Below, one piece after another: positions 21,232-47,300 of a stretch of DNA of 64,000 nt; position 1 is the stretch's first letter, and each line of letters opens with the position of its first letter. Origin of the DNA: Ascidia mentula. Lineage: Eukaryota > Chordata > Ascidiacea > Phlebobranchia > Ascidiidae. Position numbers and translations under genes: made by a program. Location of the stretch: positions 20,586,501 to 20,650,500 of the forward strand of contig OX387200.1 in NCBI GenBank assembly GCA_947561715.1. Reading direction: 5' to 3'. Below the pieces are notes generated by a model that worked only from the letters and a program-made list of their open reading frames with translations, was not told the origin of the DNA and searched no databases.

Positions 21232-23803
21232 ATGGACATTAGACTAACAAGGGGTGCAATTTCTGTACGTATTAACAATTGCTTTTATCAATCTCAACCT
21301 AATTTGTAGTTGTGTTGTCGTGAATTTTTGTTTTTTTTAATTTTGTTATGTTTTTCGTTATATATAACTACTATAGTATGACAATTCAAGATAGACCACC
21401 ATTTAATGCACATTAAAGTTGACATGCAAAAGTTTTATTGTAATATAGCAAGAAGACACCAATTTTTTGACTGGTTAATATATTTATTTGAAGTAATCTA
21501 AAACATTCGATTGCTAAACAAACTTTGGTGGAGATTAGAAAAGGCCTCTATGCATGAATGCATGACATTCTATTTCAATATTATTTTTATTTTTTTATGT
21601 CAACTTCCAAGGTGACTTTATATAAAAAATTAATTTCTGCAGGCCATATTGAGTGGAGAAACACCTAAACATCCCGTTCTACAATGTCTTTACACAACAC
21701 CTATAGGAGGTATTGGCGGCTCCAGAACAGGGGTGGTGGTATCGGATGGTGTACATCAAACTAGTAAGTAGTTCTGAAAACAGGGTGATAAAACTTGAGG
21801 TCTTGTTTTGATATTTTTGATGTTGTTGCAACTGGAACTTTTAATATTATTTGAATGTATAAGTTTTTGTTCCATTACCATATGTTGCTATTCAAATTTA
21901 TAAAACGCTTAAATTTCCAGTTGCCCTTCTGGTTCCACAACTCCACAAACATGTGCGCAATGGAAAGTTTGCAAACTATACCATTTTTCGTTTAAATAGA
22001 TACGAGAAACGGGTAATTAAACAAACAGAGTAAGTGAAAACACTTTTTGTTACTTTTTGGCTATGCATTACTGTTACTAGTATTCTTATACATAAATGGT
22101 AAACTCCAAATAAAATGCTATAAGCAAATAAAGGCTATAAAGTAAAAAAAAACATTACACACCGACCATAAAGTGTGTGTTTGTGTCATTGCCTCAAGAC
22201 ATAGTAGCTGAGAAAAACTTTTAAGTCAATCTTTCAGACAGCTTATTTAAAGATGTTTTTATTTTTGTCAGAAAAATATATTTCGCCCTGAAAAGGGCAT
22301 CATCAGTTTCTGCAAAGTGTACAAAACTGTAGGCACTTCAACCACCTCGCGGACGGGCGAAACGGGACTTCCCCGTTATATGCGTGGCTTCTCAACATTA
22401 GTTTTTACGAAGACTTTGCAATATTATAACTCCAATATTAAGTTTGTTTATGCAAAAACGTTGTTATACACTAAGAACATTTTGTTTTTTGGTAGATTTG
22501 CCTAAAGACCAAGAATTTTGATACTTGAGGACGTGTGTAGCATTGCCGAAGCATGTGGTGAACGAAACAAACGTTTTGTTGATGGAATATGTTTTGCTTG
22601 CTTTTAAAATACCTCTATACAGTGCCTTGATAACTATTTTAGTTCAGAAAGAATGATATTTCCAACAAACATGTGTGAAAAGCTAGTTTAACATATCACG
22701 AAAACCGGGGAAATCCCGTTTCGCCCGTCCGTGAGGTGGTTTAAGTGTCTACCGTACAAAACAGCGTAAAATAACTAAGTAGAAGTCTGCCACATAAAGG
22801 AAAGTACCTTGATAAAAATTAATATTAAAAATTAGAGAATGCAAATAAAAACCTGGATATGTAAGAAAAGTGCCTCAAGACCACTGGCGTAGAGTACGGG
22901 GGTGCAGGGGTGCCGCGCACCCCCGACCTTTTCTAAATTTACAACGCAATCGTATTGTGTCCTTTCGTCGATTTAAACCGCAGCAAAAATAAAGGCGCAT
23001 TTCCTTCTGATAGCACGCAAAGTGCTTAACACGCTGTTTTGTTTGTCTCGTATTCGCGAGCAACAAATACGCAACAAGCGAAATTACGTTGGTGATGAAC
23101 GTGCTTACATAGACGACGCTTTAACTTGTATATTATGGCGTGCAAGCGACCTTCTGACGTTAGTATTTTTTTTCCCCGCACCCCCGTTGATGTGCAAAAC
23201 TCTACGCCTATGCTCAAGACATTTTATTATGTTTTTGTTTCAGAAAAGTCATTGTGTGTTATGAAATAGACATTCTAGAAAACATTAGGAATGGGGATGT
23301 CGGTGATATTATTGGCACCCCAGTTCCAATGGATATGGAGGATAAAGGTAATGTGAGCAGTGTGATGGACAAACTAATATTTATTGAAATAAACCTTAAT
23401 TAAGCCTGTCAAGATGATTTATTAATGTGTAACGAAATGTGTGTTTGTCAAATTTTCAAAAATTAATAAGTGAAATCTTCCCACAAAATAGTTTTATTCA
23501 AGCACAGACTTGTTTGGTTATTTTAAAGCAGGAAATATTGGTTGCAATTATGTGAACTTTGCCGAACTGTTCTGTTTATGTAAACCATTTTTTGCATAAT
23601 TGTCACAATTGCTACATTGTGGAGTAACAATTTGCATGCTTTTTTTTCAAGTTAAATTCAGGGACACGAGATTACGAGTGAAAGATTCGTTCTGTGGTAA
23701 GAGAGAACCAAAACCTCAAATTCCTGCCAAAAAGGTAGAACGTCCTGTGGAGCATCGAACCGTTGCTAGTCTTCATGAATATTTCATGGAAAAATATGAA
23801 TGA
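21232..23803 (+). CDS. Stand-alone RPA70 N-terminal domain protein (RPA1 partial paralogue A)
   Basis: Five coding exons, 21232-21264, 21643-21763, 21921-22029, 23244-23347 and 23652-23803, give 172 residues with consistent phase. Residues 1 to about 122 form one RPA70 N-terminal OB fold (DBD-F): MDIRLTRGAIS, then KHPVLQCLYTTP, VVVSDGVHQT, KVIVCYEIDIL and IIGTPVPMD. Each matches the order in RPA1: LTEGA, PILQCLG, VISDGVH, the second strand block and IGNP. The remaining 50 residues are basic and then acidic and end HEYFMEKYE; I recognise no domain there. None of the DNA-binding OB folds or the zinc ribbon of RPA70 is present. In human RPA this domain binds ATRIP, RAD9, MRE11 and p53. Here the basic-cleft stretch RxRxxxSDG reads RTGVVVSDG, so one of two key Arg positions is Gly. 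This is the most diverged member of the cluster. Intron 3 (22030-23243) has collected two DNA transposons. A possible poly(A) signal lies at 24252-24257. Confidence 0.85.
22328..22753. mobile_element. MITE with long inverted ends and 9-bp target duplication (Mutator-like or hAT-like)
   Basis: A 426-bp element lies in intron 3 of the small RPA70N gene. Its ends are inverted repeats of about 40 bp: TGTAGGCACTTCAACCACCT at the left and its near-complement at the right, continuing through a GC-rich GGACGGGCGAAACGGGA core. It is flanked by perfect 9-bp direct copies of GTACAAAAC at 22319-22327 and 22754-22762. A 9-bp duplication favours the Mutator-like group. No transposase is encoded. Confidence 0.75.
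22882..23212. mobile_element. hAT-type MITE
   Basis: A 331-bp element whose ends read CACTGGCGTAGAGT and, inverted, CATAGGCGTAGAGT. The inner parts are also inverted around a GGGGGTGC core. It is flanked by perfect 8-bp direct copies of CTCAAGAC at 22874-22881 and 23213-23220. The GGCGTAG end and the 8-bp duplication are typical of hAT elements. It ends about 30 bases before the 3' splice site of exon 4 of the small RPA70N gene, close enough to overlap branch-point sequence. Confidence 0.85.
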
Positions 23804-25109
23804 CAAACTAACGACTAATTGATGTAAAGTTTAAATCATGTCTCGGATCGTGTTTTTGTTGTCCATGTTCTATGTTGATGTTTATACTCTGCGCTATGTT
23901 CGTTTTGAAATGTACCTCTGTCTTTCGTAACCAATTGCAATACAATGTGTTTCACGAATTGTACGCTTTTTTTCAGGAAATCGTGTGTGTTTTGTCCAAA
24001 CTCAACTACACAGATGAACAAAACACAAAGGTAATATAATGGCATGGACGTCGTGTCACCGATAAAACCATAAAGGTTATCAAGTCAGGCCCCTGATTTG
24101 AAAACAATGCTAAATTTATTGGAGCTTCACCAGCAAAAAAAAACTACTCTCCTACTAGTTCGATTCATCGTCAGAACGCGTATTATTGGCCAACCTCCCG
24201 TATATTTCTCAATTCTGTATCACCAACGCGATTAGCCTGTCACATTTCGGCAATAAAAATCATCGAATAACCTAATTGAAGTATTTGGCAATCACTGGGT
24301 TTTTTAAAAAAAATGTTTGTGACGACAATAACTGCCGAAATGTCGAAAAATTACTTTCAAAATGTTGTTATTTATACAGAAAGCTAATAGCCTATATAAT
24401 TACTTAGCATACATAAATATGAGTAGGCTATGTCCGTCCTTTTTTCTTGCGACCTTTGATTATCTCCGTAAATTAGTTCGTGATTTTCATCAGGTCTGCA
24501 GCGACGTCTATTTAAACCTGTGCAAAAGAAACTACCGTTTATCTGAAAACATGAACGCAATGACAAAGATTACAACACTCAAAAATACAAACCAGAATGC
24601 GACCCATGTTATGACATATTACTCTAATTTTACGCACTAGATCGATTTTGCTACCCGTTTTGTCCTCCACCCCCCGTGGCTTATGTTTTTGTCTTTTCTC
24701 TTGTCCTTTCTTGTTTTGTCTATCGTTTGTCTAATTTTAAGCAAAGGGTTTGTGGGTTATAAAGAATAGCAAGTGCAAGTTAATTGAGTTCAAGTCACAC
24801 GAAGAATCAAACCAGACGGACGAGTCTCTGTCATGTAAGTTAGAGTTCTTGTATTCGAGTTGCCTGTTTGCTTGCGTGTGCTTCTGCACATCGTGTTCTG
24901 GAATGTCAAGGACCAAGTGTGTGAAAGTATACATGTAATCTTAGATTTAGTGTTTTTGGTCGTTAAAAACCTTTGCACTTTCTTTTGTTTGGTGGTGATA
25001 TGTTGAAGAGTTGGTTTTCTGGTGGTAGAAATATTTAACTCATAAAAATCATAAAATTAAGCACGAAAAAATAAAAGAGCGGGAATTTTTCTTCACAGGC
25101 AGCTCAAAG
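23804..25109. other. Gap between RPA70N gene A and the hAT element upstream of gene B
   Basis: This holds the gene A 3' UTR with a possible AATAAA at 24252-24257. A weak inverted pair around CATTTCGGCA (24243) and TGCCGAAATG (24332) suggests another degraded repeat. Small open frames (24362-24640, 24750-24938) are unsupported. Confidence 0.35.
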
Positions 25110-25733
25110 CAGGGTTGCCAGATTGGCGCTTTCGGCGCCAAATTCCCTGAATTTGGCTTTTTTCTATTTTGTCTGGCGCCCAAAATTTGGTTTGGCTTAT
25201 TTGGCCCTATTCTGGCGTTTTTCCTGTTAGCTTTGCGTTCGGAAGTTGCCCGGGCTCGTTCGTGACGAAACAGGTTCGCGGTATGCTTCTTTTCGGTAAA
25301 AACGTCACGCATCACAGCCCAAGCTAGTGCAGAAGCGTTGCAAACTGTATGCCTGGGTAGTGGGTAGCGTAAACCAAAGTCCATAGAAAACACTTCCATG
25401 ACTTTTTCGTAAACTTGACTACTTGTTTAGTGACGTCATAATTTGAGTTTGGAAAGACTGTTTGTTGAAAGTTTGCGTAGCACTGGCACTGCTATGCACA
25501 TAGAAAGACGGATATAATCCAAGAGCATAAATAAACAAAGAATAGATTATATGTTGCTCTACCACATGAATGTAATTTGCCTGCAAATACAATTGAACAT
25601 ATGTTCGGGAAGCAGAAAATTAAACAATACAGTATTTAAACGATTGGCTCTTTTCTGTTTCACTCAAAACTAGTTTTGGCGCTTTTTGTCGTGTTGTTTG
25701 GCTCTAAACAAAAAAAATATTCTGGCAACCCTG
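25110..25733. mobile_element. hAT-type non-autonomous element just upstream of RPA70N gene B
   Basis: A 624-bp element with terminal inverted repeats CAGGGTTGCCAGA at both ends and a perfect 8-bp target duplication GCTCAAAG at 25102-25109 and 25734-25741. The ends and the duplication length mark it as hAT. It ends 60 bases before the ATG of the three-domain RPA70N gene, so it may sit in or next to that gene's promoter. A 116-codon minus-strand frame inside it shows no transposase similarity that I can recognise. Confidence 0.85.
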
Positions 25734-25792
25734 GCTCAAAGATAAGATTAAATTTGAAATCGTAATTTGAAACTGAAGTTCTATCCACAATT

Positions 25793-28700
25793 ATGGTTGT
25801 TACATTGACAGAAGGAGCTGTTGCCGTGAGTTATTTGATTTAAATTGGTGGTGCTAAATTTTTTTGTTCAAATAAATACATTAAATCATTATTGTTTGGT
25901 ATCTACATCAGGCCTGGCCTGAGTTGCCAGATTGGTCTTTTCAAGACCAAATTTCGGTAATTTGCCCTTCTTTGTCTTAAAAATGGTGTTTATTGCAATT
26001 TTACTTCTGAAAATAATAGCTTACCAGGTCATTAACACACAAAAAAGATTGTGACAATACTTTTGCAGGTGATGGTGAATGGAGGGTCACCTAAAGATCC
26101 CATACTTCAGTGTCTTGGCATCAGAAGCATTGCTTCTGATGAAAACAACAAGACTGTGTTCAGAATGAAAGTTTCTGATGGTGTTCACTCATTTGTTGGT
26201 AAGCTTTCGTGCTTTCAGCACCAGTTTGTTATTCTGTAACCGACTAAGGAAAATCATGTGTGCAGGTTAAAGCTTATGTATGAACAAACAAAACACGTTT
26301 GCTTGTTCGTGCGAATTCTGCCCAATCAACAATTGTCAAAAAATCTTTCGGACAATTACAAACTTTCCGATCTGGCAAATGTGTTGTAGTTTTATCAGCA
26401 ATATGTGCAGAAAAACAAAACTAATACAATACTATTCGAAAAGCATTGTCTAGTCCACTAAAAATCATGTTAAAAGAGAATTTTAGTCATGTAAACTGCA
26501 TACGATTCAATACTGCAATTGTTTGTTTGCGTTATTATTGTCAGTTTGTGATAGTGTAAATTGTCTATAAAACAAAATATTGTCATGCTCTTTACAGCTG
26601 CAGCGTTGGATACTTCCTTAAACAGTTACGTTAATGAAGGCAGGCTTAAGGAAAATACAGTGTTTAAAGTCACACAACATCAAACCGTATGTCGGGATAG
26701 TACGTAAGTCTTGGTGTACTGTGTGATAAAAAATAACTTGTTTTATGTGTAATATCTGAACTAAAGCTTTGCTCTTTGCAGAAGAGTTGTTGTATTTTTT
26801 GCATTGGACATTTTACAAACTGCAGAAGAGGTTGATGGAAAAATTGGAAACCCAATGCCTATATCATGTACTCAAACAGGTGAGTAAAAATAAACACTTC
26901 AGTCAAATTTAGCACCTGGAAAGTAAACTAATAAAAGTATGAATAGTTCAGTTAAAAAAAATGTGATACTGCTGTCGTAACTGACTACACAATAAATACA
27001 AATAAGCAACCTGCGTAGTATAGTAACATTTTATCCTGCAAGAGATAATATATGAAGAACAGATAACCTATATATATGTTATGTACATTTTTGTTGAAGG
27101 CTGCGTGAATCCTACTGCACATCAGTTAATGGCATTAAAGAATGTTGAAACATTGTCCAAAGGTTTTATTGCAGTGAGTGTTTTTTTTGCATGAAAGCTT
27201 TTCTCTCTCAGAGTTTAAGTTTCAGTCTAAAAATGAAGTCGAAAGTTTTACAGTGTTGTCAAAAACTAAAAAACTTTTCACCTAACTATTTCTGCAGGCA
27301 ATGATGAATGGGGAATCACCTAAAGATCCTATACTTCAGTGTCTTGGAATTAAAACTTTTTCTCCAAACAACACGACAAGGATGAGAATTGTAATTTCAG
27401 ATGGTGTTCACTATTTTACATGTGAGTCTGCAAATTTTCTGTCAGCAGCAAATCTATCTTAATTTCAGTGTGTTTCACTATTAGGTGATGTAAACTCTGT
27501 CTTTTTGGTCACAAAGTGTCTGTTTTGTAATCTTAACACTGTGTTAACTTTGCAGCAGCAATGTTAGCTACTGGTTTGAACAGTTATGTGAAGGAAGGCA
27601 AACTTAAAATAAACACTGTATTCAAACTCACTCGATATCAGTCATCCCTATTGGAACCATGGGAAAAGTGAGTGATAATATTGACACCACCCAACTTTTT
27701 CCACATGGAATAAATATTATATCAATGTTACAGGAGAGTTCTCATATGTCTGTCAATGAGTATTGTTCAAACTGCACAAGAAGTCGGCGGCAAAATTGGA
27801 AACCCAAAACATGCTGAAATAGGTGTGCTCGAGTTAAAACCTTTTTTGTCCAAAGTTTGAAACCATGAAAACCTGCAAAATGAATTCATAAAAACTGTAG
27901 ATAATTGAGATTGGAATAAAAATTATGCCTGGAGGATTTATTACACATTTTTACAATATTATCAGCAATGTGCAGATCTTTTTTAATTTTCAATTGTCAA
28001 TCCAAAATATTTCCTTGTCTGTGCAATTTATGTTTCTCCCCAAACAACATCGACTCACAAAATTAATTTTCCAATCTTGGTTATAATAAGTCTCTTATGT
28101 GATAACCTGGTCCAGTAATGTGATTCAAGCAAGTTCGACGGTACCTTTCAAATGAACCCAGCGATGTGAAATTCCATTAAGAAACGACTGAGATACTTAC
28201 AGAAAAGTTTAAACTGCCCTGTGGTGACAATTGCGCTGAAACTACTACACCTCAAAAACTACTTAGTTACTTTAACAAAATTTCATAAATAGAGATTGGT
28301 TGTGCTTTCTACAAGTGTACCAAGTTTAGTCACAATCGTACACAGGGTAATTAGTTTGGTGATTTAACATGAAATTACCCATTAAAGCAATGTATTGTAT
28401 GTACTTGCCAATTTATCAGTGAGCGCTGTACTGTCCATTTTACATGATTATGATTGTTATTTTACTGCATATGTTTAAGTGAAGCACAGGCAATTTTGCC
28501 AAGTGTGTATCCGTGTAGGATAGAAAAAATTATAAAGAACGTAACTTTCCTACATAATATATGTTTTTCGTTGAAGGCTGCAAAGTTGCCCCTGCAAATC
28601 AGTTGAGGACATTGAATAAGATTGTTCCGCTGACCAAAGGTTTTGTTGCTGTGAGTCTGTTTTTTTGCTAAGAGCTTTTGTATAATAATAATAATAATGA

Positions 28701-29989
28701 CAAAGGCCATAAATTTGTAGGAAATTTCCACTTATATTTTTGTCTGTTTCATTTTTACAAAAGTAAAACAGAAATCAGAGATGTAATGAGTATTATCAAA
28801 AACTTCCACTTGGACAATTTTTAGTCGATTTCTAACTTCAACAAAGTAATGTTAAAATAAATGATATTTAGTCATTTTTAAAACAAAAAAAAAGGTTTCA
28901 GAATCACTTAAAAATTTTGAAAAGTTCACCTTTATTTCTGTAGTCAATGATAAATGGGGAATCACCTAAAGATCCCATACTTCAGTGCCTTGGAATTACA
29001 ACTCTTTCTCCAAACAATATGAAAAGGATGAGAATTGTAATTTCAGATGGTGTTCACTATTTTACATGTAAGTCTGCAAATTTTCTGTCTGCAGTAAATC
29101 TTTCTCATTTTCAGTTTGTTTCACGATTAGGTGATATAAGCTCTGTCTATATGGCCCAGTGTCTGTTTCGTAATTTAAAAATGTTGTTGTTTTTGAAACT
29201 TTTTGTTTACATTTGCAGCAGCAATGTTAGCTACTGGTTTGAACAGTTATGTAGAAGAAGGCAAACTTGAAAAAAATACTGTGTTCAAGCTCACCCAATA
29301 TCAGTCAGCTCCTATGGAACCAGAGTATGTAATAACCATAACTTTGCCTGTTTGGTTGTAAAGTATTTATTGTGTCACAAAGTTTTTTTGTCCTAAACCG
29401 TGGGAAAAGTGAGTGATAATATTAACATCACCCAACTTTTTCCATGTGGAATAAATAATATATCAATGTTACAGGAGAGTTCTCATATGTCTGTCAATAA
29501 GTATTGTTCAAACTGCACAAGAAGTGGGCGGCAAAATTGGAAACCCAATTTCAGTGCATGACACTCAATCAGGTAAATATGATTAAACAGTTTCATTGAG
29601 TTTATGAGCATATTACTGTGTGGTGTTTTAAGATTCAGAATGGTAATGATATAAGTTTAATTGCAAAGTTTGCTAAAATTTTTCATATTCATATTGTCAC
29701 CTATGCACACTACTGTATAGCCTCTCTATAATTCACTGCATCTACAAAAATTTTAATGATATTTCTAAAATAGTTAACCTCTGCTGATTCTCAAATCCAG
29801 AGGAAAACTTTGTTGCAGGTTAAAATAACTGGAAACTGATTGTTTTTTTATTGTTGTTCGTTAAAAGGCCTCCCCAAGCCGCCGAACAAAACAAATAAGA
29901 GATTGATTGCTGAATCTACCAACTTCTCTTGCTCAAAAACCATTGCTGGGGAATCGGATGAAAACCCCACCAAGAAAGCTAAACAATAA
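25793..29989 (+). CDS. Triple RPA70 N-terminal domain protein (RPA1 partial paralogue B)
   Basis: Thirteen coding exons in phase: 25793-25825, 26069-26198, 26598-26703, 26782-26879, 27100-27173, 27298-27421, 27556-27667, 27734-27822, 28577-28650, 28944-29067, 29219-29324, 29475-29572 and 29868-29989. They give 429 residues. The protein is three consecutive RPA70 N-terminal OB folds. Each carries [22 protein letters not shown] and GKIGNP and each is split by introns at the same places as RPA1. Linkers of about 24 residues (GCVNPTAHQL and GCKVAPANQL) end LSKGFIA and LTKGFVA, echoes of RPA1 exon 1 (LTEGAVN). The tail is polar and ends NPTKKAKQ, a possible nuclear signal. No DBD-A, -B or -C is present, so direct ssDNA binding is not expected. 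Domains 2 and 3 keep the RMRIVISDG basic cleft; domain 1 has FRMKVSDG. An adaptor or decoy for RPA70N ligands is inference. Confidence 0.85.
25918..25990. repeat. Fragment related to the hAT element end
   Basis: The stretch GAGTTGCCAGATTGG and the self-complementary block after it resemble the left end of the hAT element at 25110. It lies in intron 1 of RPA70N gene B and has no visible partner end. Confidence 0.5.
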
Positions 29990-29990
29990 A
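29985..29990 (+). terminator. AATAAA overlapping the stop codon of RPA70N gene B
   Basis: The last codons read AAA CAA TAA followed by A, so an AATAAA hexamer straddles the stop. A second AATAAA lies at 30496-30501 and is the more ordinary candidate for the 3' end. Confidence 0.35.
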
Positions 29991-31674
29991 CAACACACGG
30001 TAAGCAGATGTAAGTTTGTGTTATCGGAATCTCCTGTTATCTTTATTGACAACAAAGACTTAATAACAGAGTTTTTGAACAACTCCCATGAATAGTCCTT
30101 GGTTTGACATGTTTTCTTTATATTTAAATTTCGCCTATGATTTCATTAATTGAGTTTAATCGTGTGTAATTGATTAAACTGGAGTTCACGACAAATCAGG
30201 ATGCATGTCACATTAGATCAGTGCTTCCCAACCTTTTTCAGTTCGCGACCCACTTTTAATGCAAGTTTTATTGTGCGACCCACAATGAGATATGACCAAA
30301 CGAATGTTACGTAATGATAATGCAATAATTTCGTGATCTAATAGAAAACTCTAACATTTTGAATTGCTTCGTGACCCTCTGGTTGGGAAGCACTGTATTA
30401 GATGATACAGTCCAGTTGGACCCCATATTCGGAAGTTTACAATTTTAGTTTTTCCAGGTACTGCTGCCAAACCTTGGGAGTAAAGAAGATAAAGAAATAA
30501 AGAAAAAAAAGATTTTTTTAAGCATTTGTAGATTTTGTGTATTTTAGAAAAAAAACGTTGATATGTGCTACTAGTTTTGTCACTGACACAAGTGTGAGAA
30601 TGTTTACTGGAATAATTTCTTTCACTGTAAAATATATACGTCCATTTGTGTTTCTGCATGTATGGAAAATAACTGTTTAATCTTGGTGACTATATGTTTG
30701 TGTGCCTTTCACTGTTTAGAACTTATTCTTCAAATTATTGCCCAAGCATTTATACTCCATTACCCTTGTATATAATGAATGCCTGCTGTGCTCAATTATT
30801 TGTTTGTTGGGTTTCCAATTGTTCTTCAAACAATTTTCTGTAGGAAGTGTTCCGAATTTTAAACGTTAGTGTTTGTTTGTATAACATTGTGTCTGATGAG
30901 TCGTTGATCTAACAAACGTATTGCCGCTGATTTGCCTGATGTTTTTGACGTTTTTCGATCTGCCTTTAAATTTATCATAATTATCGTGTTTTTAACTCGT
31001 ATGTTTATCAAAATTTTTTAATCGTAAATCAAGTTTAACGTGTCTCGTATTTTACGACTTCAGCTTTTTCATTGGTGCTTCTTCACTGCTTGTCCGAATA
31101 TGTGTGCTGCAATGGTTTGTGCTTTGCCAGAGAATTCCGTGTCGTGCTTTGCAGTAAGTAAAATCCAAAAAACTCATGATTTTGATTTGTATGAAAGTAT
31201 GTAGATTTGTCTGCAAACCTAGACGCCTATATAGATTTTAACAGCAGACAGTATAATCGATCCATCCATACATTTTGGTAAAAAACAAAACTTGAAAACA
31301 GTTTCAGAGTTTTTTTTTATCACTGTAACGTTCCATTACGTCAAAAGCCCAAATATTGGGAAAACTGTGTATGTTGTTTTTTTGGATGATAAATTTTGCT
31401 TTTCGGCGAGATTGAAGCTATCAATGAAATACCATCAATTTTTTTGTGGTTTCCAATTGTTTTGTTACATAGACAATAGAAATCATATCCCCTTAGAGCG
31501 TTTGAGCGACCTCTGATGGTAGAGAACTAAAAAACAAGAAATACCATTTGGCGGGAGTTGAGCTTTAGAGATTTCCTTTCCAATTCCTTTGAGCATTTTC
31601 GCTTGCCCTAGTTCTGGTATTTTCCGTACTTTTATTGGAATCTGGTTGATTTTTCTAAGACAACATCTGTAATC
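29990..31674. other. Gap between RPA70N gene B and RPA1
   Basis: It holds the gene B 3' UTR (AATAAA at 30496-30501), a small hAT MITE (30219-30395) and the RPA1 promoter. At about 31101-31152 a short open stretch ends at a GTAAGT donor after TGCTTTGCA. It could be an untranslated or alternative first exon of RPA1, but nothing proves it. Confidence 0.4.
30219..30395. mobile_element. Short hAT-type MITE
   Basis: A 177-bp element with inverted ends CAGTGCTTCCCAACC. It is flanked by near-perfect 8-bp direct copies (CATTAGAT at 30211-30218 and TATTAGAT at 30396-30403). It has no coding capacity. The single mismatch in the flanks suggests an older insertion. Confidence 0.8.
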
Positions 31675-34600
31675 ATGGGTGTTCAATTGACGGAAGGAGC
31701 CGTTAATGTGAGTATGTTTATTTCAAATTTGTGGAACCAATAGGCTTTTTCAGTCAGTTGTAAATAAAAATGGGAATTTAGTAACTTCAAAGTTCACCTT
31801 TATTTTTGTAGGCATTGGTGAATGGGGAATCACCTAAAGATCCCATACTTCAGTGTCTTGGAATTAAAACTATTTCTCCAAACAACATGAAAAGGATGAG
31901 AATTGTAATTTCAGATGGTGTGCACTTATTTACATGTAAGTTTGCGATGTTGCACAATATTTGTTTGAGTACAAAGCAAGACGTGCAAATTTTTGAAATT
32001 TCATCGGCAATCCACGTAAAAATAATTAGCTAATGCACTAGCAGAGGAAAAACGTCAGTTTGTCTGCACAATCAACTTTCGCCGAAAAAAATCCTCTGTG
32101 TAAATTAGACACTTTCCAATCTGGCATACATGACATCATTAAAGTGCCAGATTGGAAAGTAGAAAATTTACCCCTCACGCACATACCCGTACCAGACTGA
32201 AAAAAAAGGATAAATCCTCCGCGCATCTTTGCAAAAATTTACAGATAATCTGCACAATATCAATGAGCTAATGCATTAACATATGAAAAAACGTTGCAAT
32301 CGTCCGCGCAATTAACGATCGCCGAAACAAAATCCTCTGCACAAAAAACAAACTTTCCAATCTGGTATCCGTATGTCTGTTTTATGATGGCTACCCTTAG
32401 TCTGCTTATCAACAGATTTTTTTATTTTGAAGCATCAATGTTAGCTACTGGTTTGAACAGTTACGTGGAAGAAGGCAAACTTGAAGAAAACACTGTGTTC
32501 AAGCTCACCCAATATCAGTCATCCCTCTTGCAAGCGAACAAGTATGCCATCATAATAACTTTGCCTGATTGATTGTGAATTTTACTGTTGCACAAAGTAT
32601 TTTTGTCATGGAATTTGTGTGGATTATAGTGACCAATGTGTTGCATGTTATGTAAGTGCCAAATATTGTTTTCAGGAGAGTTGTTATTTGTCTTGGATTG
32701 GATGTCGTACAAACTGCAGAAGAAGTTGGTGGAAAAATTGGAAACCCAATTTCAGTGCAACTTTCACAACAGGGTAAATTTCTATTAGCTTTCAGAATAT
32801 GTGATTTGGAATTGATCACTGAATCTGATATGATCAAATTTAAACCAAATTTTGCATTGCAGCCACCTCGAAACCAGGAAATGAGAATGCCAATCCTCGA
32901 GGTTCAAACCGCATCCCGGCTTCTTCAATGTACAGCCCAAAACCAACAGGCAAGATGCCTTTTGGCAAGGATCAAGCACCAACTACCCCTGGTGGAACTC
33001 AGACAAGAGTAATGCCCATTGGATCCTTAACTCCATACCAAAACAAGTAAGTGCATTTTAGAATGCATGTTATTTTATGTTGTGTTTTTATGCCTGTATG
33101 TATTGCAAAAATTATTTTTTATTGATAAAAGTAATTTTTGTTTTGGCTTTCATTTAAATATTGAATGAACAGTATGTTGAAAATGGAATATCACTAAACA
33201 TTGGTAAAAAAATGTTGTTTTTATGTTCATATACATGATAATTTTCTTGAAATGTTGTATAATACCAACTGACAAAATAGAAGTAATATACATTTGCCTT
33301 GCACAGGTGGTCAATTAAGGCCAGAGTGTCACAGAAGGGGGCAATGCGTGAATGGAAGAATGCCAGAGGTGAAGGCAAACTCTTCAGTTTCACAGTACTG
33401 GATGACAGCGGGGACATTCGCATTACTTGCTTCAAGGAAGAGGCAGACAAGTTCTATGACATGGTTGAAGTTGGAAAGGTGCTTACAGTCACAAGTGTTG
33501 ATGCAGTTTGGTTGTTGAATAGAATGTGTGTTGTTGATGTAGTTAAATGTGTTTCATCAGCATATTTTGTGAATTTTTTATTGTGTAAGATAAATGTATC
33601 TTCACAGGTTTTCTTCATTTCAAATGCATCTCTGAAACCAGCCAATGCACAATACAATAACACAACACACGATTATGAGATGACACTGCGTCGTGATTCA
33701 ACTGTCACACTTTGTGACAAAGAAGATGAAAAAATGGTTCCCAAAATCCAATACAAATTTGTTGATGTTGCTGGTCTTGAAAAGATGATCAATGGGCTTG
33801 TTGGTAATTAATGAATCTATTGGGACAAAGTACAGTGTTGTGCTTGGTTGTCTCAGTGTGAAATTTGATATATTGGTAGCAGGGAAGCTTTTTCCAAAAT
33901 GTTTTTATCTTTTGTTTTAGTTGCATTTTACAAATATGGCTTGCATTACTGTTCCTGCTCATATATTTACTTATAAATGGGATTTTAAAATATGCTTTTG
34001 TATTGTAGCAATAGTACTGTATGAGTGAATGCAGACGATAAACTTATTATTGTTTTGACAAGATGTCATCGGTGTCGTAAAGTCAGTGGATGAACTCAAC
34101 ACCGTCATGATAAAAAGTCAAAATCGTGAAGCAAAAGTTCGTAAATTTTGTCTCGTTGATCAGTCGGGAGCTGAGGTTACTGTGACTCTGTGGGGCCTTG
34201 ATGTGAGTATAGAAATTGCATCGTATTCACATTTCCTTACTAACATTGTGAGTTGAAAGTGTTTGTCTTTTAACTCCTCAGTCATTTGTCGGTAAAAAGG
34301 TGTTTATTTTTTTACCAGTTTTTTGTTAATTTGCAGGCAGAGAAGTTTGATGGCAGTGGAAATCCTGTGGTGGCGATGAAGGGGGCAAAAGTGTCAGATT
34401 TTAATAATTGTTCCTTGTCAGCAACTGGTTCGACAACATTTAGCATTAACCCAGACATACCGGAGGCATACAGACTTAAACAATGGTGAACTATATTTTT
34501 GTCTACATTATTCAATGTTTTAGTGTCCCGATTTTGAGACAAAGGAACTTTTCTTCTAACTTTAATTCTTTGTAACAAGACATTGTATCTGCACAGGTAT

Positions 34601-36248
34601 GAATCGGGGGGAAGCACCCAGACAACACAAAGCCTTACAACTAGCAGTGGAGCGGGCGGTGGAACAAGTGTGTTAAGTGGTTAATGAACTAAGAAAAAAA
34701 AAGACCTTTTTCTTTTAAAGATTTTTTTGAAATTATACGTGGGACTCAGTGTATACTACAAAAATCCCTTAGTTTAAGGCAAACAATGGTGTTCATGGGC
34801 CCTGGTGGGCCACCACCCAATATAATTAAATATTTGTAGTTTTTACAGTGAGATTCACGTTTGTCATTGGCTGCACTAATTTCTACCAAACTAGGATTCC
34901 ATGTTGCCAACTCAAAATATTATCTTTAGGTTTCTCCATAGAGCAAGTTATAAAACGTTGCTTAAAGTTTTATGTGCCAGTGCCAACTGAGCAATTTACC
35001 GAATGCGCACGTTTGTAAACAACAACAGACCGAGCGTATGCGATGAAGATACCGAAAATCTTGTAGTGAACATTTATGTGTTTCAGGTTCGGCAAATTGG
35101 AAAACTCTCGCTGACATAAAGGGTGAAAACCTGGGGATGGGGGATAAACCCGATTACATCACAGCCAAAGTAACCGTGCTTTACTGTAAGAAGGAGAACG
35201 TTTTATACAAGGTAGTCTCAACGTACAAGCGAAACCTTGCCAACCTTTGTTAAGATAGTTTTAGTGATAAACTTTTTACATTAAAAAGGTGGGGCAGAGA
35301 AGGCTTACCTCACCATTAACTTCTCAAAAACCTTAGTGTGTGTTAAACTTTCATGTCTACCAACTGATTTTTAGGCTTGTCCGAACGAGCAGTGCAACAA
35401 GAAGGTAATTGACCTTGAGCAAGGTCAGTACCGGTGTGAGAAGTGCAACCTCAACACTGACTCATTCAAATTCCGACTTATTTTAAACGTAAGTCTCGTT
35501 GTTTGCTCACAAAAAAATTGTTTGTTGGTTTTACCTACTCTTGATATTCGGGACAGATGCACGTCGCGGATGAATACGACAGCACGTGGGTCACGTGTTT
35601 TCAGGAACAAGGGGAAATATTGATCGGGATGTCTGCGCAGGAGCTGGGTGAAATTCAACAAACCGACGAGAACGCATTCGAAAACGCACTCAAGCGTGTC
35701 GACTTCCAGTCGTACTTTATGAAGCTGAGAGTCAAAATGGATCGGTTTAACGTTAGTATTTTGAATGGGGTTAAGGAAATATTCGGTTATGCCCCTTAAA
35801 GCTGTTTACGTCATTGCATTGTGACGTATTTGCCGAGTGAAGATTTAGTTCCAAACTACCGAAAGTAATATTAGCTGAGTGCTGGCATTAGGTAGTTTAG
35901 TTTATATTGTCAACCTGTTTTAAAGAAGATGTCTTGTGTAAAGCGACGTCGTAGTTGTGGTTGTAGCTGCATCGTGTGGAAATGGACATGTCAATATTTG
36001 CGTGATTTTCTGAAACCACCACGATACGACATCGCTTGTGGTTTGTGATTTGACATAAACCACCAATTTAAGCTGCGTAGTTTGGCGTGTTGTTACAAAG
36101 GAAAACTCGTAACCAGCACTAACTTACGTATCCTTTTTTACAGGACGAAGACAGAACAAGGGTAACCGTTGTGAATGTATCGCCAATCAGTAACGTTGAT
36201 TACATCAAGAAACTACAGGCTGACATCCAAAAGCTGCAAGTCGAGTGA
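31675..36248 (+). CDS. rpa1: Replication protein A 70-kDa subunit (RPA1)
   Basis: Fourteen coding exons, all in phase: 31675-31707, 31812-31935, 32433-32541, 32676-32773, 32863-33046, 33307-33478, 33608-33803, 34063-34202, 34337-34485, 34597-34679, 35087-35211, 35375-35488, 35557-35751 and 36144-36248. They give 608 residues (human 616). RPA1 is the large subunit of the nuclear ssDNA-binding complex of replication, repair and checkpoint signalling. Parts in order: N-terminal protein-binding OB fold (about 1-120), a Gly/Pro/Ser linker, DBD-A ([15 protein letters not shown] onward), DBD-B ([25 protein letters not shown]), and DBD-C with the zinc ribbon CPNEQC and CEKC. The protein ends in a helix suited to trimer contacts. 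The donor after exon 10 (GTTAAT) and the one after exon 6 (GTGCTT) are weak. Intron 6 (33479-33607) is 129 bases, in frame and without a stop. The poly(A) signal is at 36747-36752. Confidence 0.95.
32000..32370. repeat. Duplicated intronic repeat in RPA1 intron 2
   Basis: Two diverged direct copies of about 105 bases (about 32028-32130 and 32266-32370) share GAGCTAATGCA-type starts, a CGCCGAAA block, AATCCTCTG and CTTTCCAATCTGG. Between them an inverted copy of CTTTCCAATCTGGCA makes a hairpin (about 32110-32160). A related piece with ACTTTCCGATCTGGCA lies in gene B intron 2 near 26355. This looks like a dispersed, non-coding repeat family. Confidence 0.6.
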
Positions 36249-37391: not shown

Positions 37392-40300
37392 CTACAACAT
37401 GGCACTGTAAAGCACCATAGTAGCGCTTACAAGCCCGGTCAAAAAGAACTTTGAACTGACGGCAATATTTCCGGCATTGTCACCGTCACCCTTGTCGCCA
37501 GGTGCTTGTTGGTCGTTGCTACTGAACATAAGGGTGTTGTCTTTGCATCCGAGCCACCACTCGTCTGCTCTACGCGGGTAAGGGTATTCCTTTACCTCCG
37601 AAACCTTGATTCTCTCGTCGTCAAATCTGAAAGAAAATTACACCTTGGTGAATTCGAGTCCAAGGAGTTTGGTAGGAGTCAACTTGCTTCAGTTATAGCA
37701 AGTGCACTGCAAATTGTTGGTTTTAAAAAATAATTTACAACATTATACATTGTCCCTTTGACAAACCACTGCACCCTCGAGTCAAATCACACAACAACTT
37801 CCATTGATGAAAGCACTTGGTCGATATTTACCTGTAGTACATCCCGTCACTGAAGAAATAAGTCTTTCCGCTCCACTGGAGGGCGGCATCTACTTTTTTG
37901 GGTATTCCCCTCCACACGGAGATGGACCTGGGGTACCCGGGGTCGGCACGTCGCATGGCGGGGTTGTAACGCCAGTACTGATCACCTGAGGAAAGAATTA
38001 AATAATGAAATTCCTGCATGGTTCTCATAATCTGGTTGCTTAGGTTTGAAAGAATCATAGCCTTCTTGTTTCAAACAATTTGGCTCTCATAGTATTAAGA
38101 AACAGTTGGACCGTTTCTGCTCAAAGTAACATCCCGCCCAAATTACTGGGAGAATAACGGTTATATATGGCACGAAAATATTGGCAACTGGTATTTTATA
38201 AATGTATGGGCTTGGATGGTATTTTTATCCACCTTTCATGAAGTAAATCTTTCCGTTTCCGCTCCATTGGAATGCGGCGTCCACAAAGGACGGAATTCCG
38301 CTATACTCCGTACTGATGTGAACCGGGAACCCGTGTTGCAGTTTCGCGTTCTTAAATCGATAAACTTTGTGTCCCTGGAAGAATGAAAGAAGTAGTTTAA
38401 AGCCTCTGTCTTGAATTTATTTTCAGTTGTATTTTTTTGTTAAATCAAGACTGAACTGTATTAGCAAACTTGATTCAATGAAATTACGATCTTTGCAGGA
38501 AACACATTAGTTTATTACCTGGAAAAAGTCGGTGTATTTTTCGTAGGTAAGAGCGGCATCGATACGTCCCGAAATTTCCCACACAGAGTCTGTTTTCAAG
38601 GGGTAGCCCTCATCTTTACCATTATTGTTGAGTCTCCAGAACTGGTCGCCCATAAAAGCGTATGTGCTTCCGTTGCTGATTCGGGTTATGGCGTCAAATC
38701 TACGAAAAAAAGGAATGTAATTTTCCTCCGTTCAATTTGTGCTTTTTGTTCGTATGACACATGTAAACGCAGTAGTAACTATTTTGGAATTATTTGGTAA
38801 ATGTCTCCGCTTCGTTTTCGTTCAAACAACTTGGTCACATATAAGGTATCTGCACCAACCTTCCGCTGCAAGCACCCACAGGTGGTGGTTTGGTGGTCGT
38901 CGTTTTCGGCGGCTTCGTTGCACGAGTGTACACAGGCCGCTTGGTGGTGGTAGTGCGCCGTGGCTTTCTGGTGGTTGTCGAAAATCCCGGTTTTTCCACA
39001 TTATCACCGTACAGAGTTTGAATTGCTGTAAATATTTCGCAAGTCAAGAAAATGGACTCCCCGGTTGGTAACTGCACCTAGCGAAACTTATAGTTGTTTT
39101 GACACGGAATGTAACGCTATAGTTGTTTTGATACGGAATGTGAGATGAACTGTAAGATTTCACAAACCTCCAATATCGTCACTGTGGAGGCCGTCAGATC
39201 GGGGGTTATAGAAGGGGGCCATCAGGGCGTCTTGTACGTCACTGTGGGAAAGTCCCAGACTATGACCGAACTCGTGGGCTGCCACAATGCGGAGATTCAC
39301 TGAAAAAAGAAATAGAAATTTAAATAAAAGTGCTTTTCGAACCTGTAAATTTTTTTTTAAATTATCCCACTTTCTTCTTTTGTAACCGCCCTGTAGTTCT
39401 TTTCGTTTGTTTTATATTAGATATTGTAAAGTTACTCTAATTTAATATATCATTCTGCTGTCAGAACTGCAGACAACCGCGAAAATTCAAACAGAATCAA
39501 CAGAATCCGTTCGCACCTTTTCCTCTGTCCGACGTAAGAGACCAAACTTCACTCTCGTCAAAATGCGCGTCACCACCGAATTGTGGAAAGTATGCGTGGG
39601 CAAGGGTTTGTCCCTGACCGTCAAATGGATCTCCGTCTCCGTGCGAACCTGAGGCGAACTTAATAACGATGTCAGCTTTCTGGTGCTTCTCCATTTTAGT
39701 GAACGTCAGCCCCGATTCCTTCGCCCACCACTGAAAAAATGACGACTTTGTTAATTTTCCGTCAGTTTTAAGAGGTTTTTGTAGATCATTGAAAACGGCG
39801 CATATTAAAATGGACGTGCTTAGCTCTGGACACAGAGCTAAGTACGTCCATTCCCAGAGCTGGCATGAACGAAATTTTATTTACAAAACTACTTTTTATC
39901 TTGTTGCCATAATATGATCTGTGAGCTGCTCTCTACGGCAATCACACATGTAAGTTATATCGCATGTAAATACATATGATGGCGACCAACTTACGTTGAA
40001 TGCTTCGGCGATTTCGTTTTCGGTTTGTCTTTGTGTTAGGTCGGGTGAGTAGTTGTCAAACTTGTAAGTTAGTTTCGATTTTGGCCACTTTGAGCCCTGT
40101 AGCGCATAGCGCCTCTTGCGGTTTTGGTCGGTTCCTGAAAACAGGCAAGGTTAAAAACCGGAAAATGCAACTGGTGAATGTTATTCACAACTGTTTAAAT
40201 AACTATATTTTTAATTTTGAAGACTTAAAGCGATAAATTACACAATGGTTCGTAACACGCTAAACTTTAAAACAGCCATAAAAATTGCTCGACATTTACG

Positions 40301-44388: not shown

Positions 44389-47300
44389 TCAGTAACCCCC
44401 CTGATCGCCGAACAACGTCGATATCTTGTCGTTGTACGGGTTGACCTTGCCCAAGGACGCCGGGGACTGGGCATTGACGGAATCGAATACTTGTTGGGCC
44501 ATCAGGGCCTGGCCGACTTGGCTCGGGTGGAATCCGTCCACCGGTTCGATCACCTGAAACGCTTCCCCACCATTTGACTCCCAAGCGTCCATAACTGGTC
44601 AAAAAGCAATAAATGTGAGTTATTCTGTTGGTGTCTTAATGTCGTGATGCAAGAATAATACCAACAACAGTGAAATTTTATGGCTTGCTTAAAAATTACA
44701 CCCCAAATACCTTTAACTTTGACAAACAACAAAATAAACATATCTACCTGCTTGTATATCGAAATCGACGTAAATACTTTCGAAGCTATCAAAAGATTCG
44801 TTCTCGGCGATGTCCTTCCCAACCGCGCTCAGGTTGGCAGCTCTCTGTGTACATAAAATTACCTGTAGCTCTTTTGACGAATTAAGTTAAATATTTCTTT
44901 CAATAAATAGATAGGTGTGGGCTTAACAAGCAGGAAAAAGTACACGTATATATTATTGAAAAGTTCGTTTATTTCCGGATTGCCTGTAATCACCCCTATG
45001 GGCGCGTTAAGAGTTCACTCTGGCCTGTTTGGAAACCACTGTGTTTGAGCTTGTTTATTGGCTAGTTGTACAAACAAACCTCCGAAGTAACATCTCTTAA
45101 TGTTGCATTGCTGTTCATCCACCCAGTACATGGGGATTCCTGAAGGCAGTTGAGATAAGCGTAGAGGTCTTTGTACTTAACATCGCTGTTCAACAAACCG
45201 ATCGGATGAAACCTGCATGGAAAACAACGAGAAACGTGAAAATTCATTTCACTGCTATTTGGTTATTTTTCATAAGTTAGTTCTCCTGTTCCCCAACTTT
45301 GTCCTGCTTAAAAGTAGAGATAAACTTTTTATGGAGGGGTTCTTTAGCTTTGTAGGGTCACGCTATACAATAAACTATAAGTCAGATCCAGTTTTAAATA
45401 AACAGCATTTAAACACAAAGTGTGGCCGCCCAGGGTTTGGTAAACAAATTGCTTTGATTCGAGTCTAAATGTCTAAGTTTTGACGATTTACAATTTATCA
45501 ACATATGACGAAACATAAATAATTGGTAAAAATGTTGAGGTACATTTGAGCCAACGCCACGGCACACCTTTGGAGAAACCCTGCTCTAATGTGTTAATTC
45601 ACAGTCATTTCTATGGGTCTAACTATATATATATATTAAATTTCCGACGCTGATGAAATCTTAGAGTTGGTTGCAATGAAGGAAATTTCGCAGATGGTGA
45701 ATTTCTTTTCAGTAAACAGAAAGCAAAACGATTGAATTCGTGTTCTTAAATGGAATATTTCACTGTTTCAAGAGGGCAAGCGGTGGCATTACAAGCTTTT
45801 CCTAGCTCCATCCCAGAAAAGCGTTGGTGTTCCCCGTCAGCCCCATTGTTTTCCCATGCAATCCCCCACAGTTACCAGGATCCCTGAAGGAAACGCATTT
45901 GCCACCTCAGGAATGACGCAATAAAAACCCCCAGTATGATGTCATAGTGCACTAACCTCTCCGCCATTGTATCCCACAGCACTCTTCCGTCAGCCAGTCC
46001 GGATAACACCACCGTGCTTCCTTTAGGGATATTCTCGTCGAGGTACTGGAGCGTTTGCATCATACTTTCTCGATATTCCGTAGTCGTTGTCATGTGTTCA
46101 ATGGTGTCACTGTGACTAAACGAAAATGCCAACAGGTCACCGTTGGGGTACTTCAAGTCGGCAACCTTATTTGGTGTAGTTGGTCGTACTGTAATATCCA
46201 ATAAACAATAGCTTATTTTTATTCAGGTTGAGAAAGTGTTGACCTCTTTTACTCTAACTATATTCAGTTACTTAACCATCAGATGATTGCTCCTCGCAAA
46301 ACGTTTTTAGGCCCACAGTGACGTAAATTCCGAATAAACAAAATAACCCAACCAAATTTGCCAATCAAGATCACTTAAAAAGGTTGAACCGTTCCGTCCT
46401 TTTTGCACGGGAATGGATTATTGAATGCTTGGTTAATTTGGGGAAGTAATTGTTGGGTTCTCAACCTGAATACTGTATAATCTCTGATAACGTCATAATA
46501 TCTGTACCCGTTGCAAACGTCATTTCCAATGAGGGCAAATACGATGAAGAGGGGGTAGTCGGTCGTGTTGTTTCTTGCAAGACTCGGTACAACCCCGTCG
46601 AAGTTGGTCGATCTTGCGCCGTTGACAGCAATATTCTGGTAGTCCCGGTGAATGCACTTGTTGTTTTTGTGCAGTTTCAAGTACATTGAGTCGACCGGGC
46701 CGTGGATTGAATCGGGCCATTCGTTTTGCATGTGGCCTGTGCGATTGAATGGAATATTAACAGTGACTTATTTACGTTTTACTGTATGGCTGGTGCGGAG
46801 GCATAAGACCGAATGCATTTCGGGACGGGGGAATACCACATTTAAAGATGGCATTGACACTGAAGTCCTTAAAAAAAGCATGATTAACTTGCTGGAAGTA
46901 ATTTCTGCTTTGCTAAACGTGAAATTTGGTACTTTTTCAAACCTCATGTTTCGAGGTAAAAACTCCTTTGTAATAAAACAATTAGCTTTTCATTGAAACT
47001 AACACAATTCACCCAAGTAAATATATTCATATTCACCCGTGACACTGGATAGTTGTGGCCAATCAAATTCGTCAGTGAGTAACATGATCAAATCCTTAAA
47101 CGTTTCCTAAAAAAACGCCACCTTTATTCACAGGTTTAATTAAAAGCTACCCATAACATTTTTGTGTAAAATTGTTGTTTGATTTAAATCGTGACAATTA
47201 ATTTTTAATAACTTGCGTTCGACACGAGATTCTTGATTTTCCGACTATGGCAATGAAGTTTCTCTGTTTCACGATAACGAGTGTAGTTAGGGGAGACTGA

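What the first reader, a model, noticed from the sequence alone, without database searches (positions are those of the whole stretch)
21232..36248. A tandem family of RPA70 N-terminal domain proteins built next to RPA1
Seen in sequence: five RPA70N (DBD-F) domains lie in 15 kb. One is in a 172-residue protein, three are in a 429-residue protein, and one is in the full RPA1. All share the same intron positions and phases, so they come from partial duplication of the RPA1 5' end. Known: RPA70N recruits ATRIP, RAD9, MRE11, p53 and others and hardly binds DNA by itself. Inference: truncated copies without the ssDNA-binding folds could compete for, or bridge, checkpoint and repair partners, making a built-in regulator of the RPA hub. 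I know of no described protein with this architecture.
Basis: partly seen in the sequence, partly recalled or inferred. Interest (0 to 1): 0.88.

Follow-up and report, generated by a model that had tools for sequence, protein, structure and literature searches.

The report
Three-headed RPA70N gene beside RPA1
In a sea-squirt genome the start of the DNA-repair hub gene RPA1 appears to have been copied several times, giving two extra predicted genes made only of its protein-docking domain; one strings three such domains together, but only one of its three domains keeps the usual docking residues.

Summary
Between 21232 and 36248 lie gene A (5 exons, 172 aa, one RPA70N), gene B (13 exons, 429 aa, three RPA70N) and a complete RPA1 (14 exons, 608 aa). 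Modelled junctions are all GT-AG and intron phases are shared. The exon-2 search found these five copies and no others in the 196-Mb assembly. RPA1 is 80% identical to Phallusia mammillata RPA1, so the host is an ascidian.

The array looks like repeated partial tandem duplication of the RPA1 5' end: dS to RPA1 is saturated for A, 0.72 for B1, 0.37-0.40 for B2 and B3. In B, the exon-1 equivalents of domains 2 and 3 have lost their ATG and lie in in-frame 74-nt linker exons. The B branches taken together show purifying selection (omega 0.41, p 0.001).

The 'decoy' interpretation survives only in part. The hydrophobic core is kept, but the four basic ligand-anchoring positions are intact only in B's middle domain (4/4; others 2/4, 2/4; A 1/4), against 157 of 170 RPA1-type proteins. 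I favour an adaptor with one canonical and two altered domains. There is no RNA evidence; alternative RPA1 heads are not excluded by phase.

The parts
21232..23803 (+). Gene A: exons 21232-21264, 21643-21763, 21921-22029, 23244-23347, 23652-23803; 172 aa; one RPA70N domain plus a tail coded by its own last exon
25793..29989 (+). Gene B: 13 exons, 429 aa, three RPA70N domains (B1, B2, B3) and a lysine-rich tail
25793..26879 (+). B domain 1 (exons 25793-25825, 26069-26198, 26598-26703, 26782-26879); fold core kept, groove 2/4 basic
27100..27173 (+). B linker exon 1 (74 nt): 41 nt of unknown origin plus the exon-1 equivalent with ATG changed to AAT; acceptor ranks 1 of 16 AGs in its intron; holds an in-frame ATG at 27129
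27298..27822 (+). B domain 2 (exons 27298-27421, 27556-27667, 27734-27822); groove 4/4 basic as in its own RPA1
28577..28650 (+). B linker exon 2 (74 nt): exon-1 equivalent with ATG changed to AAG, no ATG in the exon; acceptor ranks 1 of 36 AGs in its intron
28944..29572 (+). B domain 3 (exons 28944-29067, 29219-29324, 29475-29572); groove 2/4 basic, position 91 is Glu
29868..29989 (+). B last exon: lysine-rich tail and stop; no second match found in the genome
31675..36248 (+). RPA1, complete: 14 exons, 608 aa, RPA70N plus the ssDNA-binding OB domains
31675..32773 (+). RPA1 exons 1-4 (31675-31707, 31812-31935, 32433-32541, 32676-32773), the unit that was copied

Best explanation
Origin (well supported in outline): the 5' end of RPA1 (promoter side to exon 4) was duplicated in tandem at least three times, probably A first, then B1, then the ancestor of B2 and B3; each event leaves a truncated copy directly upstream of the intact RPA1 (inference). 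The truncated copy has an orphan phase-1 donor after exon 4. In A and at the end of B the donor found a new terminal exon; inside B it found an acceptor upstream of the next copy's exon 1, which turned that exon into an in-frame linker, with loss of its ATG, and fused the copies. A later duplication of the four-exon 1-1 module (399 or 402 nt) made B2 and B3. Function (inferred): B is a soluble, probably nuclear adaptor that does not bind ssDNA or join the RPA trimer because it has no DBD-A/B/C (roles of these domains recalled). Its middle domain should bind the acidic amphipathic motifs that RPA70N binds; B1 and B3 are folded OB domains with altered grooves and probably changed or weaker partners. 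A is a further diverged single-domain relative. B would act as a limited competitor or recruiter for some RPA partners, not as a general decoy.
For: Exon structure and phases. All five copies in one array. dS to RPA1: A saturated, B1 0.72, B2 0.37, B3 0.40; B2-B3 0.26. Tree: B2 with B3 (ultrafast bootstrap 99), both with RPA1 (74), B1 next (81); the last two are weak, and A is unplaced (32). Blast similarity of B2/B3 to RPA1 runs about 20 nt into intron 1. Linker acceptors rank first in their introns, 1 of 16 and 1 of 36; the B1 exon-4 donor is in the top 0.1% of 1104 GTs. Length differences of homologous coding exons are multiples of three. Omega of the B branches 0.41, different from 1 at p 0.001. 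Neutral simulation: 0 of 2000 runs leave B1-B3 stop-free, minimum 3 stops. Fold core 29/29 in B1, B2, B3 and 27/29 in A; groove 2, 4, 2 and 1 of 4. Mutating those four arginines reduces ligand binding of human RPA70N (PMC10479964, passages); the double change R41E/Y42F abolishes BLM/RMI1 motif binding (PMC7838300, passages), and B1 has V and F there.
Against: No transcript evidence. B2-B3 coding exons (340/392 identical) are no more conserved than their introns (277/317), p 0.82 (the intron figure comes from a gap-heavy global alignment and may be too high). Omega for the B1, B2 or B3 tip alone does not reject 1 (p 0.069, 0.065, 0.090). B1 has an in-frame stop at 26885-26887 and AATAAA at 26889, just past its exon-4 donor, so a B1-only product is possible. 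B2's linker has an in-frame ATG, so B2-B3 could be a separate gene. The 41-nt upstream part of the linkers shows no similarity to the RPA1 or B1 upstream region, so its UTR origin is inference. Some splice sites of A score poorly: exon-1 donor in the top 31% of GTs, exon-3 acceptor in the top 26% of AGs.
Confidence: 0.55

Rival explanations
1. B is two genes: a single-domain B1 that ends by reading into its intron 4 (124 aa), and a B2-B3 two-domain gene that starts at the ATG in the first linker exon (297 aa), perhaps as part of a trans-spliced cluster.
For: In-frame ATG at 27129 in the linker exon; in-frame stop and AATAAA just past the B1 exon-4 donor. The ascidian Ciona uses spliced-leader trans-splicing, and artificially fused models of neighbouring genes are a known error there (PMC2760879, passages).
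Against: B1 keeps the strongest donor scored in the region (9.9, top 0.1% of 1104 GTs; the RPA1 donor at the same place scores 6.7), in phase with the linker. B3 has no ATG in its linker, so B2 and B3 at least are most simply joined.
Confidence: 0.2
2. The copies are alternative RPA70N heads of one RPA1 gene: A, B1 or B1-B2-B3 splice to RPA1 exon 5 in some transcripts.
For: B exon 12 joined to RPA1 exon 5 reads through in frame; A exon 4, B exon 4 and B exon 8 also end at phase 1 (those joins were not translated); the RPA1 exon-5 acceptor scores 11.4.
Against: A and B each have their own last exon with a stop. The splice would skip RPA1 exons 1-4. Extension through RPA1 exon 1 from an acceptor at 31660 is out of frame.
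Confidence: 0.1
3. A decaying or recently neutral array: the copies are transcribed little or not at all and are on the way to pseudogenes.
For: Exons are no better conserved than introns between B2 and B3; single-branch omegas of B1, B2 and B3 do not reject 1; groove residues are lost about as often as general divergence predicts (expected 1.6, 1.1, 0.9, 2.6 of 4 for B1, B2, B3, A, my arithmetic from the identities; seen 2, 0, 2, 3).
Against: No stop and no frameshift in 18 exons; joint omega test p 0.001; 0 of 2000 neutral simulations stop-free; fold core fully kept in B1-B3.
Confidence: 0.12
4. General decoy: A and B titrate ATRIP, RAD9, MRE11, BLM and other RPA70N partners.
For: B2 keeps all four basic positions. 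[quoted passage not shown]
Against: B1, B3 and A lost 2, 2 and 3 of 4 basic positions. Position 91 is basic in 170 of 170 RPA1-type proteins but Thr, Glu and Glu in B1, B3 and A.
Confidence: 0.15

Closest known systems
RPA1 (RPA70) N-terminal domain, RPA70N / DBD-F (Pfam PF04057)
   Same: Same domain, same intron phases as the RPA1 next door
   Different: Three in a row without DBD-A/B/C; groove residues lost in two of three
RPA70N-only proteins P0171-P0176 (190-208 aa, ENA contigs, organism not shown)
   Same: RPA70N as the only Pfam domain listed
   Different: Single domain, groove intact (4 of 4 basic in six of six), a different tail with a cysteine/histidine motif; no sign of a link to this array
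RPA1 paralogs of plants (PMC4731521, passages read)
   Same: RPA1 duplication with diverging N-terminal domains
   Different: Those are full-length or lack DBD-F; here DBD-F is all that is kept
BTR complex (BLM/RMI1) triple RPA-binding motifs (PMC7838300, passages read)
   Same: Multivalent RPA70N contact, seen from the ligand side
   Different: Ligand peptides, not RPA70N domains

Membership tests
RPA70N (Rep-A_N, PF04057) domain | Profile match over the full domain | tested here: met
   Three stretches in B, one in A; RPA1 residues 4-115 match solved human RPA70N
RPA70N (Rep-A_N, PF04057) domain | Hydrophobic core positions of the OB fold | tested here: met
   29/29 in B1, B2, B3; 27/29 in A, by alignment only; no structure was predicted
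Canonical RPA70N ligand-binding module | Basic residues at human positions 31, 41, 43, 91 | tested here: not met
   Met only by B2 (4/4); B1 2/4, B3 2/4, A 1/4; RPA1-type proteins 157 of 170 with 4/4, 3 of the other 13 because of gaps
RPA1 / RPA70 subunit | DBD-A, DBD-B and zinc-bearing DBD-C after the N-terminal domain | tested here: not met
   In A and B only Rep-A_N passes its Pfam cut-off; BRCA-2_OB1 in B is just below (24.3 of 25.6 bits). The neighbouring RPA1 has two further OB families and aligns over 100% with Phallusia RPA1
Tandem duplicate of the RPA1 5' end | Shared intron positions and phases, same strand, adjacency | tested here: met
Pseudogene array | Stops, frameshifts, omega near 1 | tested here: not met
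   No stops; joint omega 0.41, p 0.001; but single branches do not reject 1 and exons are no more alike than introns
Ascidian operon | Same-strand genes less than 100 bp apart (criterion of PMC2760879, passages) | tested here: not met
   A to B about 2.0 kb and B to RPA1 about 1.7 kb between modelled coding ends; UTRs unknown
Ascidian operon | Spliced leader on the mRNAs | not testable with these tools
   No RNA data

The most novel reading that the evidence does not exclude
The array is a set of interchangeable protein-docking heads for RPA1: transcripts starting at A or B can splice from their phase-1 exon-4-type donors to RPA1 exon 5, so that one ascidian makes RPA complexes carrying the normal head, a groove-altered head, or three heads in tandem, and thereby switches which checkpoint and repair partners RPA calls in. 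The stand-alone A and B proteins would be the second output of the same locus.
Probability: 0.1. Interest if true: 0.85.

Novelty: new variant of a known kind. Interest (0 to 1): 0.52.

Why it matters
RPA70N is a main docking site by which RPA-coated ssDNA calls in checkpoint and repair proteins (PMC10479964, PMC7838300), and animals are described as generally having single RPA subunit genes (PMC4731521, abstract start). A lineage that makes separate RPA70N-only proteins, one with a canonical and two altered grooves, would be a natural experiment on how that hub is tuned. It would also show how a tandem partial duplication can build a multidomain protein: orphan donors capture the leader of the next copy.

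Tried and rejected
Assembly duplication: rejected, exon 2 differs by 7.3% or more in the four comparisons made and exon 1 by up to 54.5%. Other copies in the genome: none by exon-2 protein search. A tail, B tail and linker gave one match each, the query itself; but the linker search also missed the known second linker (68% identical), so these DNA searches do not exclude diverged relatives. Multi-RPA70N relatives: none of 54 hits to B covers more than 48% of it (only the 7999 candidates sharing most words were scored), and each of the 176 proteins listed has one RPA70N (one search listed 120 of 2480 hits). RPA70N-only relatives: six hits, one family; a viral-contig search with that family gave none. 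UTR origin of the linkers: no similarity to RPA1 or B1 upstream, nothing convincing with A. Gene conversion: supported between B2 and B3 (run of 28 variable sites, 0 of 5000 permutations) but not significant between RPA1 and B2 or B3 (p 0.098, 0.074). RPA1's own N domain is unusually far from Phallusia's (61% against 89% for the rest); of 2133 pairs of similar core identity 40, this one included, are as low, 35 of them with one fish (P0145) and 4 with another (P0156); this could not be tied to the array. Omega of A (0.031) was set aside because its branch is saturated. Paper searches for RPA70N architecture or duplicates showed no multi-RPA70N protein in what was listed (20 of 961, 20 of 30, 0, 4, 3 and 3 papers; titles and abstract starts); (replication protein A, ascidian, RPA1) returned none. 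sought the splicing mechanism (4 papers and 1 paper listed) without a precedent in titles or abstract starts.
Full report
WHAT IS THERE. The window holds, on the plus strand, gene A (21232-23803, 5 exons, 172 aa), gene B (25793-29989, 13 exons, 429 aa) and a complete RPA1 (31675-36248, 14 exons, 608 aa). Every modelled junction is GT-AG. Pfam finds Rep-A_N three times in B and once in A; RPA1 residues 4-115 match solved human RPA70N (8.7e-21). In the assembly (195.8 Mb, 79 contigs) the exon-2 protein gave five matches from five scored candidates, all in this array.

HOW IT AROSE. All five copies share intron phases 0, 1, 2, 1. Synonymous distances to RPA1 are 0.37 (B2), 0.40 (B3), 0.72 (B1) and saturated (A); B2-B3 is 0.26. 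The protein tree puts B2 with B3 (ultrafast bootstrap 99), both with RPA1 (74) and B1 next to these (81); the last two values are weak, and A is unplaced (32). Thus divergence falls along the chromosome towards RPA1. This is what repeated tandem duplication of a 5' segment gives: each event leaves a truncated copy directly upstream of the intact gene (inference). A truncated copy has a phase-1 donor after exon 4 with no partner. In B, the partner is an acceptor upstream of the next copy's exon 1. The two linker exons are 74 nt, begin at phase 1 and end with the 33-nt exon-1 equivalent, whose ATG is now AAT in B2 and AAG in B3. Their acceptors rank 1 of 16 and 1 of 36 AGs in their introns, with a matrix trained on the 13 RPA1 acceptors. 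The modules from linker to exon 4 measure 399 and 402 nt, symmetrical 1-1 units. The two linkers resemble each other (50/74; 200-nt upstream score 44 against a shuffle maximum of 28) but not the region upstream of RPA1 or B1, so I cannot show that the first 41 nt were leader sequence.

UNEVEN AGE INSIDE B. Between RPA1 and B2 or B3, exon 2 is 91-93% identical but exon 1 only 45-58% (Fisher p 9e-9 and 2e-5), whereas B1 is even (76% and 74%, p 1). Either the lost start codon freed exon 1 to change, or exons 2-4 were homogenised. A run test supports conversion between B2 and B3 (28 sites, 0 of 5000) but not between RPA1 and either (p 0.098 for B2, 0.074 for B3).

ARE THEY REAL GENES? For: no stop or frameshift in 18 exons; exon length differences all multiples of three; omega of the B branches 0.41, rejecting 1 at p 0.001; B2, B3 and their stem 0.39, p 0.001; in 2000 neutral simulations none left B1-B3 without stops (means 4.8, 3.2, 3.2; start sequence RPA1, rates). 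Against: B1, B2 and B3 tips taken singly do not reject 1 (p 0.069, 0.065, 0.090), the RPA1 tip itself gives 0.88 (p 0.91 against 1), B2-B3 exons are no more alike than introns (340/392 against 277/317, p 0.82), and some A splice sites score poorly (exon-1 donor top 31% of GTs, exon-3 acceptor top 26% of AGs). There are no RNA data. I put the chance that at least one extra gene makes protein at about 0.85 (judgement).

WHAT THE DOMAINS CAN DO. I compared the copies with the 170 RPA1-type proteins listed (redundant, fish-heavy; one search listed 120 of 2480 hits). Of 29 positions that are hydrophobic in at least 95% of these, B1, B2 and B3 keep 29 and A 27. The four arginines whose mutation weakens ligand binding in human RPA70N (31, 41, 43, 91; PMC10479964, passages seen) are all basic in 157 of 170; of the 13 others three have gaps there. 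Position 91 is basic in 170 of 170 and positions 41 and 43 in 168 of 168 with a residue. RPA1 of this species has K, R, R, K; B2 the same; B1 R, V, R, T; B3 T, R, R, E; A T, R, G, E. The double change R41E/Y42F in human RPA1 abolishes binding of BLM and RMI1 motifs (PMC7838300, passages); B1 has V and F there. So the fold core is kept and the classical docking groove is not, except in B2. The losses are about what general divergence would give (expected 1.6, 1.1, 0.9, 2.6 of 4 for B1, B2, B3, A from the identities; seen 2, 0, 2, 3), in contrast to the RPA1 proteins of Phallusia, Clavelina, Ciona and Styela, which keep all four basic at 38-61% identity of the domain.

MECHANISM. Shown: architecture of the models, absence of a Pfam match to the DNA-binding OB domains in A and B, fold-core positions, groove residues. 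Inferred: B is a free adaptor that does not enter RPA; B2 binds RPA70N-type acidic motifs; B1 and B3 bind other or fewer partners; B therefore competes with or recruits some RPA partners. [quoted passage not shown]

ALTERNATIVES KEPT OPEN. B1 can end alone (in-frame stop at 26885-26887, AATAAA at 26889). B2-B3 can start at an in-frame ATG at 27129; B3 has no ATG in its linker. The exon-4-type donors of A and B are at phase 1, as RPA1 exon 5 needs, and the B12-exon 5 join, the one I translated, reads through, so alternative RPA1 heads are possible. A join through RPA1 exon 1 from 31660 is out of frame. Spliced-leader trans-splicing (Ciona: 11,797 of 12,615 transcript models with defined 5' ends; PMC2760879, passages) may affect where these mRNAs start. 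The odds given to the readings overlap and need not sum to one.

NOVELTY. None of the 54 hits to B covers more than 48% of it, and each of the 176 proteins listed has a single RPA70N. The profile search for short proteins gave six, one family of 190-208 aa with one groove-intact RPA70N. RPA70N-only proteins are thus not new as a kind; three in a row, with mixed grooves, I found nowhere. Searches of the paper library listed none (titles and abstract starts seen).

VERDICT. Observation confirmed; origin by partial RPA1 duplication supported; the decoy idea only partly supported.

Noticed in passing
P0171-P0176, alignment A3: A family of single RPA70N proteins of 190-208 aa with an invariant PCPHCHRH motif and a tail rich in Asp/Ser/Gly, on ENA contigs of 0.75-1.1 kb; organism not shown; groove fully basic.
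   Followed up: partly
31675-32773: RPA1's own RPA70N is only 61% identical to Phallusia's while DBD-A/B/C is 89%; 40 of 2133 pairs of similar core identity, this one included, are as low, 35 of them with one fish. Two other pairs among the tunicate or tunicate-like hits with core 89-91% have 92% and 82% in this domain.
   Followed up: partly
22326-22375 and 22706-22755: Inverted repeat of 50 nt, 90% identical, in intron 3 of gene A; could be the ends of a small mobile element.
   Followed up: no
32024-32127 and 32262-32368: Direct repeat of about 105 nt, 77% identical, in RPA1 intron 2; 32100-32171 is also an imperfect palindrome.
   Followed up: no
38225-39880, minus strand: Matrix metalloproteinase exons (Peptidase_M10, hemopexin) downstream of RPA1 on the other strand.
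   Followed up: partly
52180-53208: 342-aa open frame with a NUDIX domain.
   Followed up: partly
46375-46767, minus strand: Weak GDSL lipase match just under the Pfam cut-off.
   Followed up: no
6674-7099 and 8567-8923: Two open frames sharing a motif that recalls fatty-acid-binding proteins (recalled, no Pfam hit); possibly another tandem pair.
   Followed up: no
P0001: The Phallusia RPA1 record has 17 extra residues before the usual start, as if its leader were open in frame; such a leader could be turned into a linker.
   Followed up: no
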